NCBI GenBank assembly: GCA_018814745.1
Contig: JAHIZC010000229.1
Span: 1 to 11,905, forward strand
Source: Candidatus Omnitrophota bacterium
GTDB lineage: Bacteria; Omnitrophota; Gorgyraeia; Gygaellales; Profunditerraquicolaceae
Direction of reading: 5' to 3'
DNA: 11,905 nt
The number at the start of each line of letters is the position of its first letter. The first letter of the stretch is position 1. The notes under the pieces are model-generated. The model was not told the DNA's origin, made no database searches, and saw only the letters and a program-made list of their open reading frames with translations. The position numbers and the translations under genes are program-made. Positions 655 through 6,951 of the stretch are shown one piece after another.

Positions 655-785
655 GAGAAAGTCTTCACATCCAAAGCAGAAGCGTCTTCTAACCCAAAGC
701 AGAGTCGTCTTCACTGCCAAAGCTAAGGCGTCTTCGGAGCCGTTCGGGAAGCGTCTTCACTGCCGAAGCTAAGGGTGCCCCCCCT
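648..785. repeat. Tandem array of 23-bp units (locus 1)
   Basis: Units start at 671, 694, 717, 740 and 763, exactly 23 bp apart, with a degenerate unit at 648. Three units begin ccaaagc, and most carry a version of gaagcgtcttcactg, itself a small inverted repeat (GAAG-CGT-CTTC). The last unit, starting ccgaagctaagggtg, ends in a run of seven C (778-784). The final 43 or so bases recur in inverted orientation at 4433-4475. The array lies just beyond the 3' end of doxX. An 87-codon open frame across it is explained by the repeat and is not called as a gene. Confidence 0.8.
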
Positions 786-788
786 ATA

Positions 789-1181
789 TCAGAGCTTATT
801 GTAGATGCTGTACTTTCCTGCTCCCGAAATAATTAAAGCAAAACAGACAGCCGCAATAATCAAAGTATATTCAAAGCCACCCGCTGATAGAAAGAACCCA
901 TTTGGTATATGAACCTTTAGCGCCGCTACAGCTATCAAAATCAGCAATAATGAAGAGGTACTCCTAACCAGGATTCCAAAAATCAAAAATAACCCTCCTA
1001 TTAATTCAACATATGCTGCTAGATAAGCCCAAAATAATGCTGGCGTAAATCCCATAGCAGATAACATCTTGGTAAATCCATCAATTCCAGGACCACCAAA
1101 CAAACCAAAGCACTTCTGTAACCCATGACCTGCGAACATAGCACCCAAGGAAACCCTCAAAACTAAACTTGCCAGATTCAT
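789..1181 (-). CDS. doxX: DoxX family membrane protein
   Basis: A 130-residue integral membrane protein with four hydrophobic segments (roughly residues 4-22, 48-70, 74-92 and 104-121). The N-terminal signature AGHGLQKCFGLFGGPG, the later YVELIGGLFLIFGILVR and the GGFEYTLIIAA stretch are typical of the DoxX family. Members were named from a thiosulfate:quinone oxidoreductase subunit, and many are of unknown function but linked to redox or quinone proteins. The start is taken as the ATG at 1181. It overlaps the stop of the restored ndh frame (TGATG) and lies 9 bases after GGAGG (1195-1191). A GTG at 1184 would add one residue and is the alternative. It is the last gene of the prenyltransferase-ndh-doxX operon, so a role near the quinone pool is inferred. 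Its substrate is not shown by the sequence. Confidence 0.85.
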   Translation of the reverse strand: MNLASLVLRVSLGAMFAGHGLQKCFGLFGGPGIDGFTKMLSAMGFTPALFWAYLAAYVELIGGLFLIFGILVRSTSSLLLILIAVAALKVHIPNGFFLSAGGFEYTLIIAAVCFALIISGAGKYSIYNKL

Positions 1182-1381
1182 CACCTCTCACCTCCCCTGA
1201 TTATCAAGCTTCGCGTTATCCCTAATTTGCTCCTAAGCGAATAAGAACGGTATATACACATTATATAATGGAAAAACGTAGCAAGAAAGCCTTTTACTTC
1301 TAAGCCTAAGACTCTTCCGCAGGAACTATTATTAGCCATAGGTATGATATAGCCTAAATCTATTGGTGTATATTTATGAAG
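1181..1381 (-). pseudogene. ndh: Out-of-frame C-terminal part of the type II NADH dehydrogenase
   Basis: In the -1 frame relative to the ndh body, 66 residues can be read from CTT at 1381 to TGA at 1183-1181. They start LHKYTPIDLGYIIPMANN and include VLGLEVKGFLATFFHYIM and CIYRSYSLRSKLG. This is the pattern expected for the C-terminus of bacterial NDH-2: the family-typical stretch around 'Y-x-x-x-DLG-x-x-x-P-M-A', then an amphipathic, hydrophobic membrane-attachment region followed by basic residues. Joined to the first 310 codons of the upstream frame it gives about 376 residues, a normal size for the family. The stop overlaps the doxX ATG, as expected for a coupled operon gene. It has no start or ribosome binding site of its own, so it belongs to ndh. 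Whether it is translated is unknown. Confidence 0.85.
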
Positions 1382-2310
1382 TTTTTTCCTCCTATGCTAT
1401 CTATTATATTTCGAGCAGCGCACTTACCTTCCATTATGCTGAATTGAACCGCCATCCTTAAAAATGATTTTTTATACGGGAAATAAGCTGCGTCGCCGGC
1501 AACAAAACAATCTTCGGTCAACCTTAAATACTCATCGGCCTTTATCCTACCCTGCGGGTTTTTTTCTACTTTTAAATCCTCAATAAACTTCCCGGTTTTT
1601 ACCCCTGCAGACCAAATCAACATAGCATTCTTAAAAACTACTCCATTGGTCAAATAAATATTCCCTTCTTCAATTTTCTCAATAGAAGTATTTAATAAAA
1701 TACCAACATCCATCTTCTCAAGGTTCTTGCCTACATAAGTTTTCATCCATTCAGGCAATGGCCCTAAAATCGAAGCAGCTCGTTCAATGATCACTATCTT
1801 TTTGTGATCAAATTTTCCACTCATTCTCTTTCTAAGATTTGTAGCTATCTCTATGCCCGTGTAACCGCCTCCGATGATAAGATAACAACTAAAGTTCCCC
1901 TCTTCTATACCCAGGTAAATCTTCTTTACGTCCTCGGCACCATCCAGTTTATAAGCGTTTTTCATTGTATTATTATCGCCGTAAAAGTTTGTTTCAGATC
2001 CGCTGGCAATAAGCAGATAATCATAGATTAGTTCTTGCCTAAGAGTAAATACTTTATTTTGTTTTAAATCAACGGAATAAACATCTTGATTAATAAATCG
2101 GAATCCGTATCTTTTACTTAAATCACTGATAGGATAAACCATAAAATTAGTGTTTATTTTCCTGCCTATCGCATCAGGCAAAAGAGGTAAAAAATTAAAA
2201 TTTAATTTTTTATCTATTAGGGTAACTTCAACTTGCCTTCTCTGTCTGGATAAAACTCTGGCCGTGCTCAAGCCGGCAAAACCGCATCCGATAATTATAA
2301 CTTTTTTCAT
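1360..2310 (-). CDS. ndh: Type II NADH:quinone oxidoreductase (NDH-2), frame 0, truncated by a frameshift
   Basis: A 316-residue FAD-dependent pyridine nucleotide oxidoreductase. Residues 8-13 (GCGFAG) are the FAD-binding GxGxxG. ASGSETNFYG (102-111) follows the first beta-alpha-beta region. GGGYTGIE (147-154) begins the NADH-binding Rossmann fold, and CFVAGDAA (268-275) is the late FAD contact. NDH-2 is a peripheral membrane enzyme that oxidises NADH and reduces quinone without pumping protons. Its ATG overlaps the TGA of the upstream prenyltransferase gene (ATGA, 2310-2307), indicating translational coupling. The protein ends with GGKNFINIHQ, just where the family continues into the membrane-binding C-terminus; that missing part is present in the -1 frame at 1381-1181. 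As it stands the product would lack membrane attachment. The cause is either a lost A in a run of six (1382-1387) or programmed slippage. Confidence 0.9.
   Translation of the reverse strand: MKKVIIIGCGFAGLSTARVLSRQRRQVEVTLIDKKLNFNFLPLLPDAIGRKINTNFMVYPISDLSKRYGFRFINQDVYSVDLKQNKVFTLRQELIYDYLLIASGSETNFYGDNNTMKNAYKLDGAEDVKKIYLGIEEGNFSCYLIIGGGYTGIEIATNLRKRMSGKFDHKKIVIIERAASILGPLPEWMKTYVGKNLEKMDVGILLNTSIEKIEEGNIYLTNGVVFKNAMLIWSAGVKTGKFIEDLKVEKNPQGRIKADEYLRLTEDCFVAGDAAYFPYKKSFLRMAVQFSIMEGKCAARNIIDSIGGKNFINIHQ
1381..1387 (-). other. A AAA AAC slippery heptamer at the ndh frame junction
   Basis: In frame 0 the codons are GGA AAA AAC, so the last seven bases form the X XXY YYZ pattern A AAA AAC in the correct phase. 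A -1 slip here leads directly into the CTT codon that opens the missing NDH-2 C-terminus. The same heptamer is the known -1 frameshift site of IS1. An AGGAGG lies immediately upstream (1392-1387), closer than the roughly 10-base spacing known for the stimulator in E. coli dnaX. A simple one-base deletion in the A run explains the data equally well or better. Confidence 0.45.
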
Positions 2311-3197
2311 ATCAATAAATCCAAGATTAATATAATCCCTACCAGTGTTTGTAAAGTTATAGTCAATTTGGATGATTGGATCAGTTTTGCCTTATCCTTA
2401 AAATCTCTCTTCAGGATATTACCGGTTTTAACTGCCAGAATAATAAATACCAGGCAAGATAAAGCCCGAACACTTAAGAAGCCTAGCCAAATATTGAGAG
2501 CTATAGCTAATAATGCAGCGCCAACTAACATATAATAGGTAACAAAAGCCTTCTTGGGACCGGTAATACTTACCCAGGTGGATTTTTCCGCTTGTTTATC
2601 ATCAGCAAAATCAGGGATTTCGTTAACGAACAAAATCAAAGTAACTAAAAAACCGAAGGGTAATGATAGCATAAAACTTCTAAGATCAGGAAATATGCCG
2701 GTTTGAATAAAATACCCGCCCATAACCAAAGCAGGTCCAAACAAAATGAAAAGCACAGGTTCACCCAGCCTTCTATAAGAAAGCTGCAGCGGTTTAATTG
2801 AATATGACCAACCTAGGAAAACAATAAGCAGGTAATATATGATTACTGTCGGCCTTTTTAAAACTAGGGCTAGAAAGATAACGCTAAATAAAGAAATAAA
2901 AGCAAGAACTACGGCAAACCGTAGATAGAATCTCTCAGAGAATACTTTCTCCTGGATTAGTTTAGAACCTCCAAAGAACCTATAGAATTTTCTATCCTGC
3001 CAATCTGCGCCACTCTTTGAATCCGCATAGTCATTGATCAGATTAGCGCTCAGGTGAGTGGAAATTGCCGCAATTAACCCTAGAAAAAAACCGAAGAGAT
3101 TGAAATATTCTCTTTCGATAAGTGAACCGAAGACAAAAGGTAGGACGCTGGCGGTAACAAACGGTAATCTAAGAGCTCTCGCAAAGTCTCTGATCAT
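2307..3197 (-). CDS. menA: MenA/UbiA-type polyprenyltransferase
   Basis: A 296-residue membrane protein with about eight or nine hydrophobic helices, the usual size for the UbiA superfamily. The first aspartate-rich motif is NLINDYADSKSGAD (residues 52-65). The second is NEIPDFADD (192-200). Both bind the Mg2+-diphosphate of the prenyl donor. The stretch FFGGSKLIQEKVFS (74-87) and YSIKPLQLSYRRLGE (132-146) resemble 1,4-dihydroxy-2-naphthoate octaprenyltransferase (MenA) more than 4-hydroxybenzoate transferases, so a role in menaquinone formation is likely. The acceptor cannot be proved from sequence. No other menaquinone gene is in the window. It is first in the operon with ndh and doxX, and divergent from the prenyl diphosphate synthase that would supply its donor. 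No Shine-Dalgarno precedes the ATG at 3197. Confidence 0.85.
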   Translation of the reverse strand: MIRDFARALRLPFVTASVLPFVFGSLIEREYFNLFGFFLGLIAAISTHLSANLINDYADSKSGADWQDRKFYRFFGGSKLIQEKVFSERFYLRFAVVLAFISLFSVIFLALVLKRPTVIIYYLLIVFLGWSYSIKPLQLSYRRLGEPVLFILFGPALVMGGYFIQTGIFPDLRSFMLSLPFGFLVTLILFVNEIPDFADDKQAEKSTWVSITGPKKAFVTYYMLVGAALLAIALNIWLGFLSVRALSCLVFIILAVKTGNILKRDFKDKAKLIQSSKLTITLQTLVGIILILDLLI

Positions 3198-3243: not shown

Positions 3244-4284
3244 ATGCTTTTGGCAATAAAAAATAGAGTAGATAGCGAACTGAATAGATTCGTACTTGAC
3301 CTAGATAGCTTATACTCCGTAAATAAGTTATCCCCCCTTCTATTTAAATCAATAAAGGAGTTTATTTTAAGAAAAGGTAAGCGCTTAAGGCCCACCCTGC
3401 TTGTAATCGGCTATCTGGGCTTTAGCTCAAAAATTGCTCCAAATCTCTATAGAACCGCTATATCTCTAGAGTTGCTGCACGATTTTATGCTAGTGCATGA
3501 TGACATAATCGATAAATCCGCTACCAGACGCGGAAAACCTTCGATGCACGAAGCGTTCAATAGATACCTAAAAGGTAATAATAATCGCAAGTTCAGCGGA
3601 GAGGACCTAGCGATTGTTGCCGGAGATGTGATATATGCTATGGCAGTACATGCCTTCCTTGCTATAAAAGAAAATCTCTACCGCAAAGAATTAGCCTTAA
3701 AAAAGTTTAGTGAAGCGGCCTTCTATACCGGAGGCGGAGAATTTCTCGAGTTGCTCTGCGGCCTTAAAAGTATCGAAAGGATGTCTAAGGAAGATATCTA
3801 TAAAATATACGACTTAAAAACTGCAAATTATACCTTTGCTTCACCTTTAAGTATCGGTGCAATCTTAGCCGGTGCTTCAAAAAAACAGGTCGATATAATT
3901 TTTAATTATGGTTTATATTTAGGCAGGGCGTTTCAGATTAAAGATGACATTATCGGTATGTTTGAAACTGAAAAAGAGATCGGAAAATCTACTCTTACAG
4001 ACCTACAGGAATCTAAAAAGACGCTGCTTATCTGGTATACCTACGAGTATTCAGATAATAAAAGTAAAAAAACTATAAAAAGAATTTTTTCGAAAAATAA
4101 AGTAACTAAAGCTGACTTAGCTAAAATACGTAATATTATAATAAAATCAAAAGCGTTGGACTATACTAAAAGAGAGGTTGATTTATTAAGAAAAAAAGCG
4201 GAAGTCTTGATTAAATCTTCTTTAATAAAACCCGATTATAGAAATACTCTTACTGCATATTCAAAAAATATACTCGATTTATAG
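3244..4284 (+). CDS. Polyprenyl diphosphate synthase (trans-isoprenyl, probably short chain)
   Basis: A 346-residue all-helical isoprenyl diphosphate synthase. KGKRLRP (residues 44-50) is the isopentenyl diphosphate binding region. The first aspartate-rich motif is HDDIID (85-90), followed by RRGKPSMH (95-102). KTANYTFASP (192-201) is the family's KT motif, and FQIKDDIIGMF (230-240) is the second aspartate-rich region. The enzyme condenses isopentenyl diphosphate onto an allylic diphosphate. Phe81, five residues before the first DDxxD, suggests a C15-C20 product by the usual chain-length rule, but this rule is not decisive. It is the only plus-strand gene and is transcribed away from menA, whose donor it may supply. 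The C-terminal 80 residues are lysine-rich and more diverged than the catalytic core. Confidence 0.88.
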   Translation: MLLAIKNRVDSELNRFVLDLDSLYSVNKLSPLLFKSIKEFILRKGKRLRPTLLVIGYLGFSSKIAPNLYRTAISLELLHDFMLVHDDIIDKSATRRGKPSMHEAFNRYLKGNNNRKFSGEDLAIVAGDVIYAMAVHAFLAIKENLYRKELALKKFSEAAFYTGGGEFLELLCGLKSIERMSKEDIYKIYDLKTANYTFASPLSIGAILAGASKKQVDIIFNYGLYLGRAFQIKDDIIGMFETEKEIGKSTLTDLQESKKTLLIWYTYEYSDNKSKKTIKRIFSKNKVTKADLAKIRNIIIKSKALDYTKREVDLLRKKAEVLIKSSLIKPDYRNTLTAYSKNILDL

Positions 4285-4340
4285 TCAACTCTTGCTTATT
4301 CCCCGCCTTTAAAGCAAAAAAATACAACCTCCACCCCACA

Positions 4341-4501
4341 CCCTACTAGAAGCGTCTTTGGAGCCAAAGCTAAGCCTGTCCCCAACCCAAAGCAGAAGCG
4401 TCTTTAGAGCCTAAGCTAAGGGTGCCCCCAGAGGGGGCACCCTTAGCTTCAGGAGTGAAGACGCTTCCCGATTGGGTATAAAGACGCTTCTATTTATTGG
4501 G
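4341..4501. repeat. Two 23-bp-unit arrays facing each other (locus 2)
   Basis: Direct units begin at 4341, 4364, 4387 and 4410, exactly 23 bp apart. Units in the opposite orientation occupy 4433-4455, 4456-4478 and 4479-4501. The unit resembles locus 1: ccaaagc followed by agaagcgtcttt. Both half-arrays end in the tail aagctaagggtgccccc and are joined tail to tail around AGA. In reverse complement, 4433-4475 matches about 43 bases at 740-784 with roughly five differences. The element fills the gap between the converging prenyl synthase and hppA genes. Confidence 0.8.
4395..4467. terminator. Strong hairpin between convergent genes, possible bidirectional terminator or transcript end protector
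   Basis: A perfect 17-bp stem (4413-4429 with 4433-4449, AAGCTAAGGGTGCCCCC) encloses a three-base loop AGA. After an 8-by-8 internal loop the stem continues for 10 bp (4395-4404 with 4458-4467, gaagcgtctt). It lies between the stops of two converging genes, the right place for a shared terminator. No T tract follows on either strand, so a canonical intrinsic terminator is not supported. It arises from the tail-to-tail joining of the 23-bp arrays. Confidence 0.5.
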
Positions 4502-4505
4502 GGTG

Positions 4506-6608
4506 TTATTTAAAGAGGGTGTTAGAGATGACAAAAGAGGTAAAAACAATGGAGACCATAGACATAAGTTTAATCAGGATATTAATGCTCGGGCCTGCGG
4601 TATCTTTAAATGGGTCTCCAACAGTATCCCCAACTACACTGGCCTTATGAGCAAAAGAGCCTTTTCCGCCAAGATTACCTTCTTCGATATACTTCTTGGC
4701 ATTATCCCAGGCTCCCCCGGAGTTAGCCATCATTATTGCCAAAACAAAACCGCATACCAATGTACCTATTAAAAGCCCTACTGTTGCCTCTACTCCTATA
4801 AGTAAACCAACCACAATCGGAGCAATAATAGCGGTTAATGAAGGTAGAATCATCTCCTTTTGCGCTGCGACAGTAGCAATTTTTACACAGCGAGCATAAT
4901 CAGGCTTTGCCTCCCCTTCCATAAGGCCAACTATTTCTTTAAATTGCCTGCGTACTTCTACTACGATTTTACCAGCTGCCCTACCTACTGCACGCATGGT
5001 CATAGAGGAAAATAAAAATGGAAGCATCCCGCCGAGAAATAAACCTACCAAGAGATTAGGATTCATCAGGCTTAAAGTCATCTCCTTGCCATATAAAGCA
5101 ACCTGCTCTCTATAAGCAGCAATCAAGGCCAAAGCCGTTAAAGCAGCAGAACCTATAGCAAATCCCTTACCTGTAGCAGCAGTGGTATTTCCTAATGCAT
5201 CTAAAGCATCAGTTCTTTTCCTGACCTCCGGAGGTAGATTTGACATTTGGGCGTTACCACCGGCATTATCAGCTACCGGTCCATAAGCATCTGTGGCTAA
5301 AGTTATCCCCAATGTTGATAATAATCCTACAGCGGAAATCCCCACGCCATAAAGGCCGGCCTGGAAATTAGCCGCTCCTCCGGAAAGAAAAAAGCTCGTT
5401 AAAATTGCTATCCCTATAATAATCACCGGAAAGAAAGTCGACATCATTCCTACGGACATACCGCTGATAATAACCGTAGCCGGGCCGGTTAAAGATGCAT
5501 CTGCAACAGAACGGGTAGGCTTAAAATTACTGGAGGTGAAATATTCTGTTGATAACCCAATCAAGACTCCTGCGATCAAACCAGAGAGCACCGACCAATA
5601 AACTCCTAGATTCTCTACGCCCAATGTAAATCTAATTAAAAAATATGAAGTTACTGCGACCAATATCGCGCTGACAAAAATCCCTTTTCTTAGTGCGGCT
5701 AATAAAACATTCTGCTTTGCTTCTTCGCTGCTTCTTACAAAAAAAGTACCCAATATAGAACAGAAAACCCCTACCGCAGCCATAACCATAGGAACGGTTA
5801 CGCCTGCCACTCCTAAACCAGCGGCTACACCTAAAGCTGCAGTAGCTACTATCGAACCTACATAAGACTCGTAAAGATCAGCACCCATACCTGCTACGTC
5901 GCCGACATTATCACCTACATTATCTGCAATAACCGCAGGATTACGCGGATCATCCTCGGGAATTCCTGCTTCAACCTTACCTACTAAATCTGCTCCTACA
6001 TCAGCTGCTTTGGTAAAGATACCTCCTCCTACCCTGGCAAATAAAGCCTGAGAACTAGCACCCATACCAAAACAAAGCATTGTAGAAGTAATCGCGGTGA
6101 TTTTATCTGTTCCTATAGGTATAGGGTGGCTGGAATAATACCAATCGAGAAAATAATACCAAATACTCAAATCCAGGAGCCCTAAACCAACTACCACCAA
6201 ACCCATCACAGCACCGCTTGAGAAAGCCACACGCAATCCAGAATTCAGGCTCTTCATTGCAGCCGCGGTTGTGCGGTTAGAGGATTCAGTCGCAATGCTC
6301 ATTCCGATAAATCCTGCTAAACCGGAAAATAAACCTCCTGTCAGAAAGGCATACGGCACAAAAATAACTAAATACTTCTTTAATGCCATAATGTATAGGA
6401 TAATAAAAACTACAATAAAGAATATAGCTACTCCTGCATACTGCCTCTTGAGGTAAGCCTTTGATCCGACTTTCACTGCCTGAGCAATCTCCTTCATCCT
6501 AGGAGTCCCCTGATCTTTAGAAAGGATCGAGAAAGCAAGGTAGGCGGCAAATAATAACGCGATTATCGAACCAACCGGTGCCAACAACAATAAATCAAAA
6601 TTACCCAT
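4506..6608 (-). CDS. hppA: Membrane-bound K+-dependent pyrophosphatase, probably Na+-translocating
   Basis: A 700-residue membrane protein with about 16 hydrophobic segments, full length for the family. It hydrolyses cytoplasmic pyrophosphate and pumps an ion outward. The substrate site is intact: DVGADLVGKVE (203-213), DDPRNPAVIADNVGDNVGDV (219-238) and, near the end, GGAWDNAKKYIE and GDTVGDPFKDTAGPS. GNTTAATGKG (473-482) has Ala at the position that is Lys in K+-independent enzymes, so it belongs to the K+-dependent group. The gate glutamate in GADLYESYVGSI (Glu247) sits where Na+-pumping enzymes such as that of Thermotoga maritima carry it. Na+, or both Na+ and H+, is therefore more likely than H+ alone, though this is inference. 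The ATG at 6608 has AGGAG (6622-6618) 9 bases upstream. Pyrophosphate released by prenyl and other biosynthesis would be its fuel. Confidence 0.95.
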   Translation of the reverse strand: MGNFDLLLLAPVGSIIALLFAAYLAFSILSKDQGTPRMKEIAQAVKVGSKAYLKRQYAGVAIFFIVVFIILYIMALKKYLVIFVPYAFLTGGLFSGLAGFIGMSIATESSNRTTAAAMKSLNSGLRVAFSSGAVMGLVVVGLGLLDLSIWYYFLDWYYSSHPIPIGTDKITAITSTMLCFGMGASSQALFARVGGGIFTKAADVGADLVGKVEAGIPEDDPRNPAVIADNVGDNVGDVAGMGADLYESYVGSIVATAALGVAAGLGVAGVTVPMVMAAVGVFCSILGTFFVRSSEEAKQNVLLAALRKGIFVSAILVAVTSYFLIRFTLGVENLGVYWSVLSGLIAGVLIGLSTEYFTSSNFKPTRSVADASLTGPATVIISGMSVGMMSTFFPVIIIGIAILTSFFLSGGAANFQAGLYGVGISAVGLLSTLGITLATDAYGPVADNAGGNAQMSNLPPEVRKRTDALDALGNTTAATGKGFAIGSAALTALALIAAYREQVALYGKEMTLSLMNPNLLVGLFLGGMLPFLFSSMTMRAVGRAAGKIVVEVRRQFKEIVGLMEGEAKPDYARCVKIATVAAQKEMILPSLTAIIAPIVVGLLIGVEATVGLLIGTLVCGFVLAIMMANSGGAWDNAKKYIEEGNLGGKGSFAHKASVVGDTVGDPFKDTAGPSINILIKLMSMVSIVFTSFVISNTLFK

Positions 6609-6653
6609 TTTAAATTTCTCCTTTTATCAGAAAATTAATTTGTAATTGTGCCT

Positions 6654-6681
6654 ATGCTAACATAAAAATATTATAAGTCAA
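6654..6681 (-). promoter_or_regulatory. Candidate promoter for hppA
   Basis: On the minus strand TTGACT (6681-6676) and TAGCAT (6659-6654) are 16 bases apart. The predicted start is near 6648, giving a leader of about 40 bases that contains the hppA Shine-Dalgarno. This would let hppA be expressed apart from the upstream genes, whose last stop is at 6688. Sequence-only prediction. Confidence 0.4.
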
Positions 6682-6687
6682 TATAAT

Positions 6688-6951
6688 TTATTCCAGCTTC
6701 TGTTTATCGTCTACCACCCGTCCTTCTACGTCTATTACATCATCCTTCTGGCCTGGCGCAGAAGCAATCCGGCGCATGAGAATATAGGAATTAAGAAAAA
6801 AGAGCAAAATTAATACTCCTTCTATTAGCAACCAGGTAGTAAATCCAAAGAAGATCCAACCAAAGAAGAAATTGAATACTATTAGTGAAGGAAGTAGACA
6901 TCCTGTCCGGCTTAAGAAGATCATAGAACTCAAATTATCCTTTTTAGACAT
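6688..6951 (-). CDS. Small two-helix membrane protein, function unknown
   Basis: An 87-residue protein of unrecognised family. After a polar start (MSKKDNLSS) there are two long hydrophobic stretches (about 18-37 and 39-59), rich in Phe and Leu. A basic RR follows, then an acidic tail of about 25 residues (DDVIDVEGRVVDDKQ). The acidic tail and arginines suggest that both ends are cytoplasmic. It starts 8 bases after the stop of the methyltransferase gene, and a GGGAG inside the end of that gene is rather far away for a ribosome binding site. The spacing suggests co-transcription. It precedes hppA, but a functional link to the pump is only a guess. Its length, good hydrophobic pattern and clean spacing argue that it is a real gene. 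Confidence 0.65.
   Translation of the reverse strand: MSKKDNLSSMIFLSRTGCLLPSLIVFNFFFGWIFFGFTTWLLIEGVLILLFFLNSYILMRRIASAPGQKDDVIDVEGRVVDDKQKLE

What the first reader, a model, noticed from the sequence alone, without database searches (positions are those of the whole stretch)
1181..2310. ndh is split at an in-phase A AAA AAC heptamer, with the whole missing C-terminus present in the -1 frame
Frame 0 of NDH-2 ends at 1360 right after the conserved core. From 1381 the -1 frame encodes 66 residues with the expected NDH-2 ending (KYTPIDLGYIIPMANN, then an amphipathic membrane anchor). The join occurs at GGA AAA AAC, a textbook -1 slippery site in the right phase, and the restored stop makes a TGATG overlap with doxX. 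Known: A AAA AAC is used for -1 frameshifting by IS1. Inference: either one A was lost from a run (7 to 6), or a soluble, short NDH-2 and a membrane-bound, full-length NDH-2 are made from one gene. A homopolymer error is the simplest explanation and must be excluded first.
Basis: partly seen in the sequence, partly recalled or inferred. Interest (0 to 1): 0.75.

Follow-up and report, generated by a model that had tools for sequence, protein, structure and literature searches.

The report
Broken NDH-2 gene, probably ordinary frameshift
A respiratory-type enzyme gene in a draft genome of an uncultured Omnitrophota bacterium changes reading frame at a short run of A; intact relatives, the lack of any frameshift signal and other broken sequence in the same draft point to a sequence error or one-off mutation, not a regulated switch.

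Summary
In detail: an NDH-2-like gene (minus strand, 2310-1360) leaves frame 0 at GGA AAA AAC (1387-1381), and its missing 66-residue C-terminus lies in the -1 frame, ending in a TGATG overlap with doxX. The two-product reading is not supported. Of 37 distinct relatives whose fetched DNA covers the junction, 35 carry the tail in one open frame, one has five TAG but the same frame, and one changes frame at a run of N upstream of it. No stimulator was found: first hairpin 26 nt downstream, folding no better than shuffles; AGGAGG abuts the heptamer. In-phase A AAA AAC occurs 12 times in 158 sampled ORFs. The tail has not decayed. The same draft genome (247 contigs, 80.75% complete) holds its only recognisable valS, an essential gene, with an internal stop and a frame change, so its consensus seems to carry errors. 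Best explanation: a length error in the A run or, less likely, a recent mutation. Reads and papers could not be consulted.

The parts
1360..2310 (-). Frame-0 ORF of the NDH-2-like flavoprotein, 316 aa (FAD/NAD core, Pyr_redox_2)
1381..1387 (-). A AAA AAC heptamer at the frame change
1181..1381 (-). -1 frame: 66-residue C-terminus homologous to intact relatives, then TGA at 1183-1181
1360..1380 (-). Frame-0 continuation after the heptamer: FINIHQ and TAG, without counterpart in the aligned relatives
789..1184 (-). doxX (PF07681); an ATG at 1181-1179 overlaps the TGA of the -1 frame
2307..3197 (-). UbiA-family prenyltransferase (MenA-like) directly upstream

Best explanation
The gene is an ordinary single-frame NDH-2-like oxidoreductase gene of Omnitrophota. 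In this draft genome the A run at 1387-1382 has a length that breaks the frame, through a consensus or assembly error (most likely, about 0.58 of the whole probability) or a recent mutation in the sampled strain (about 0.30). It does not encode a regulated second product. Shown: the frame break, the undecayed tail, its single-frame state in relatives, and that an essential gene is broken in the same assembly. Inferred: the cause of this break.
For: 35 distinct orthologues keep the tail in one open frame, L024 keeps the same frame with five TAG, and 52 of 56 non-own match rows of the family search have an uninterrupted open frame of at least 377 aa. No stimulator. A runs of 7 or 8 are frequent in sampled ORFs: 66 and 18 in 59,038 codons, so targets for such a change are plentiful. 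The end of the -1 frame overlaps doxX as in relatives L010, L011 and L015, which marks the full-length form as ancestral. Draft of 247 contigs. Its only recognisable valS (contig C49 = L109) has an in-frame TAA (6450) and a frame change at a repeat-like stretch (about 5480-5560), while 19 of 20 relatives searched have a match without inner stops, 16 of them with open frames of 874-954 aa; a cell cannot live on a broken sole valS, so errors in the consensus are likely. The other relative of the ndh gene that changes frame, in G128, does so at a run of N.
Against: Breaks are rare: among 103 homology-supported stretches (94.9 kb; window plus 60 of 247 contigs) only ndh and valS were seen broken, and the valS breaks are of another type (an in-frame stop; a change at a repeat-like stretch), not in an A run. 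An unassembled second valS is possible at 80.75% completeness. The heptamer is a real slippery sequence in the right phase. The undecayed tail (ratio 1.138, rank 12 of 36) fits a still translated tail as well as an error.
Confidence: 0.88

Rival explanations
1. Programmed -1 ribosomal frameshifting at A AAA AAC makes a short and a full-length NDH-2 from one gene.
For: In-phase A AAA AAC at exactly the junction; tail undecayed and open to its natural stop.
Against: Not conserved: none of the 35 open orthologues, nor L024, changes frame here. First hairpin 26 nt downstream (19 nt in one of 13 shifted folds); folds no better than shuffles, z +0.62 and +0.76. AGGAGG touches the heptamer (0 nt), not the roughly 10 nt known for dnaX (recalled). 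The frame-0 product would lose a segment conserved in the aligned relatives. Pseudoknots were not tested.
Confidence: 0.04
2. The mutation is real and recent, and the A run happens to give some -1 slippage by ribosome or polymerase, so a little full-length enzyme is still made (accidental leaky rescue).
For: In-phase heptamer and undecayed tail; slippage on A runs is known in general (recalled).
Against: A run of six A is short for polymerase slippage (recalled); nothing here shows expression; an error or a very young mutation explains the undecayed tail equally well.
Confidence: 0.08

Closest known systems
Bacterial type II NADH dehydrogenase (NDH-2) and NADH dehydrogenase-like proteins with solved structures, e.g. 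PDB 5na1, 4nwz, 9pxk (YjlD)
   Same: Two-dinucleotide-fold FAD/NAD enzyme; an intact relative (L039, 368 aa) matches 9pxk at E 2e-24 over residues 2-316, 5na1 at 2.8e-24 over 2-333 and 4nwz at 4e-22 over 3-338
   Different: The last 30 to 52 residues of L039 are not covered by these matches. In the window the last 66 residues are out of frame
Programmed -1 frameshifting as in dnaX and IS1 (recalled, not from a call)
   Same: X XXY YYZ heptamer in phase
   Different: No downstream structure and no Shine-Dalgarno at the usual distances, no conservation

Membership tests
Programmed -1 ribosomal frameshift | Slippery X XXY YYZ heptamer in frame 0 | tested here: met
   GGA AAA AAC at 1387-1381
Programmed -1 ribosomal frameshift | Downstream stimulatory hairpin or pseudoknot about 5-9 nt after the heptamer (distance recalled) | tested here: not met
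   First hairpin starts 26 nt after the heptamer, 19 nt in one of 13 shifted folds; z +0.62 and +0.76. Pseudoknots not tested
Programmed -1 ribosomal frameshift | Upstream Shine-Dalgarno about 10 nt before the heptamer (distance recalled) | tested here: not met
   AGGAGG ends 0 nt before the heptamer
Programmed -1 ribosomal frameshift | Conservation of the frame change in related genomes | tested here: not met
   Not seen in 35 open orthologues nor in L024. No genome listed is of the same genus (32 genomes without a match were not listed), so sister species are untested
Programmed -1 ribosomal frameshift | Both products made in the cell | not testable with these tools
   needs proteomics or ribosome profiling
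NDH-2-like flavoprotein | Two-dinucleotide-binding oxidoreductase related to solved NDH-2 | tested here: met
   Pyr_redox_2 at 4.9e-38; intact relative L039 matches solved NDH-2 chains by sequence
NDH-2-like flavoprotein | NADH:quinone oxidoreductase activity | not testable with these tools
   needs an assay; of 40 NCBIfam matches the best 25 were shown and none of these passed its cut-off

The most novel reading that the evidence does not exclude
The break is real in this species, and -1 shifting on A AAA AAC supplies a minority of full-length, membrane-bound NDH-2 beside a short form: a lineage-specific frameshift site of recent origin without classical stimulators.
Probability: 0.06. Interest if true: 0.55.

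Novelty: not a real feature. Interest (0 to 1): 0.1.

Why it matters
As a regulated switch it would be a new way of making soluble and membrane-bound forms of a respiratory enzyme. As it stands, it is a caution: a slippery heptamer at a frame break in an A-rich draft genome is what a length change in an A run can leave by itself, so the motif alone is weak evidence for recoding.

Tried and rejected
Structure: an AlphaFold2 job on intact relative L039 with 3 further sequences gave mean pLDDT 55.5, with residues 301-368 below 50; I drew nothing from it and ran no fold search. A codon-usage scan for frame changes listed 93 candidate pairs, many plainly ordinary neighbouring genes, and did not list the ndh break itself, so it was insensitive and I replaced it by the homology scan (24 of its 1,631 probes were skipped by BLAST). 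Outside the window one search flagged six rows at five places. L048 at about 10914 is two neighbouring paralogous genes, the second with its own GGAGG and GTG. L109 at about 5500, which I first took for noise, proved on re-checking to be valS with an in-frame stop and a frame change; this raised the odds of a consensus error and lowered those of a real mutation and of leaky rescue. L048 at 9867 and L054 (49-63 bits) lie opposite to longer ORFs; L119 (54 and 88 bits) was not resolved. The short relative G128 turned out to break at a run of N. Pfam has no family for the tail (68 residues, E up to 1).

Full report
What is there. On the minus strand of an 11,905-base contig (C162 of a 1.10 Mb, 247-contig genome, 80.75% complete) lies an ORF of 316 aa (2310-1360) with the FAD/NAD core of the pyridine-nucleotide oxidoreductases (Pyr_redox_2, 4.9e-38). 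Its named relatives from the genome collection are three Candidatus Omnitrophota loci (47-52% identity) and one distant Bacteroidia locus (28%). An intact relative, L039, matches solved NDH-2 chains, so 'NDH-2-like' is fair; none of the 25 NCBIfam matches shown (of 40) passed its cut-off, so the activity itself is untested. Frame 0 ends IGGKN-FINIHQ-stop. From the heptamer AAAAAAC at 1387-1381 the -1 frame reads LHKYTPIDLGYIIPMANN and on to RGGER, 66 residues, and stops at TGA 1183-1181, overlapping an ATG of doxX.

Relatives. I examined 41 loci with a close relative. In 38 the tail lies in one open frame with the core. Three of these (L041, L072, L075) have the same junction DNA as L021, L039 and L040, which leaves 35 distinct. 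Of the other three, L028 and L029 are cut by contig ends, and L024 has five in-frame TAG but its tail in the same frame. In the family search of 108 genomes, 56 had a match at 1e-60 or better, the window's own included. Of 56 match rows besides its own, 52 have an uninterrupted open frame of at least 377 aa; about half of these rows were not fetched, so for them only the length is known. The other four are G018 (= L024), G128, and two partial matches that start at residues 86 and 94. G128 was fetched: its frame changes at a run of N some 15-20 residues upstream of this place, with the tail going on in another frame. No genome listed is of the same genus (32 genomes without a match were not listed), so sister species could not be compared; this is the main gap.

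The slippery site. Programmed -1 shifting usually rests on the heptamer plus a downstream structure and, in bacteria, an upstream Shine-Dalgarno (distances recalled). Downstream of the heptamer the first predicted hairpin begins after 26 nt, and 70- and 100-nt stretches fold slightly worse than the mean of their shuffles (z +0.76 and +0.62); in one of 13 shifted 60-nt folds a stem begins 19 nt after the heptamer. An AGGAGG is present but abuts the heptamer. Pseudoknots were not modelled. The heptamer is not rare: 12 in-phase A AAA AAC, this one included, in 158 ORFs of at least 200 codons stop to stop (59,038 codons; window plus 60 of 247 contigs; some of these ORFs may be spurious), with 66 A7 and 18 A8 runs on the coding strand. 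In the 60 bases around the junction 7 of the 35 distinct relatives have some in-phase heptamer, none at the window's codons; L079 has A AAA AAC two codons upstream, inside an intact frame. Phase is no independent support: a run of A that changes length in front of C at this codon position leaves the heptamer in phase by itself.

Age of the break. The tail is as similar to relatives, compared with the core, as in intact genes: mean identity 0.590 against 0.519, ratio 1.138, rank 12 of 36 (others 1.032-1.312). One of 11 invariant tail columns (N361S) and one of 36 invariant core columns (L57M) are changed. No decay is seen, as expected for an error, a very recent mutation, or a tail that is still translated; the test does not separate these.

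How sound is the assembly? ORFs of relatives (1,631, from 60 stretches of three genomes and from the fetched loci; 24 were skipped by BLAST) were compared with the window and 60 contigs (282,580 bases). 103 coding stretches in 30 contigs, 94.9 kb, were supported at 100 bits or more. Two genes are broken among them: ndh, and a valyl-tRNA synthetase gene on contig C49 (L109), identified by tRNA-synt_1, Anticodon_1 and Val_tRNA-synt_C matches of its pieces. That gene has an in-frame TAA at about 6450 and a frame change at a repeat-like stretch at about 5480-5560. I found no other valS in this genome: the next hits are at 26% identity in a 952-aa frame and a 60-residue stretch. In 19 of 20 relatives the gene matched without inner stops, in 16 with open frames of 874-954 aa. 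valS is essential (established knowledge), so these breaks are probably consensus errors, though an unassembled second copy cannot be excluded. This makes an error at the ndh A run more credible, but the valS breaks are not A-run changes, and two broken genes in 94.9 kb is a low rate.

Verdict. Most likely a homopolymer frameshift in a normally single-frame gene (0.88), as consensus error (about 0.58) or recent mutation (about 0.30). Accidental leaky rescue of a real mutation 0.08; a programmed switch 0.04. Neither reads nor papers could be consulted: all paper calls failed, and what I say about known frameshift sites is recalled.

Noticed in passing
L109 (contig C49 of the same genome) 4018-6827, minus strand: The only recognisable valS of the genome has an in-frame TAA at about 6450 and a frame change at a repeat-like stretch at about 5480-5560.
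   Followed up: yes
L024 (G018:C18:13439-17368), minus strand: The ndh relative in another genome of the same family has five in-frame TAG, no other stop, and an intact tail. Its UbiA neighbour, hppA and 15 ABC-transporter matches show no inner stop, so a genome-wide TAG reassignment is unlikely; a decaying gene is possible, but TAG alone five times is odd.
   Followed up: partly
window 661-787: Intergenic stretch (AAAGCAGAAGCGTCTTC-like units) with 17 further matches in the same genome at 80-97% identity, in 12 contigs including this one: a dispersed intergenic repeat.
   Followed up: no
L182 (G128:C71:8800-10100): A relative of the gene changes frame at a run of N, an assembly gap of probably wrong length.
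   Followed up: yes
window 789-2310: The ndh-doxX order recurs: 17 fetched loci of relatives show a DoxX-like ORF matching window 792-1352 in the part of the output that lists inner stops, sometimes with overlapping stop and start. The tail motifs SCG and MCIYRS are strongly conserved and the tail matches no Pfam family.
   Followed up: partly
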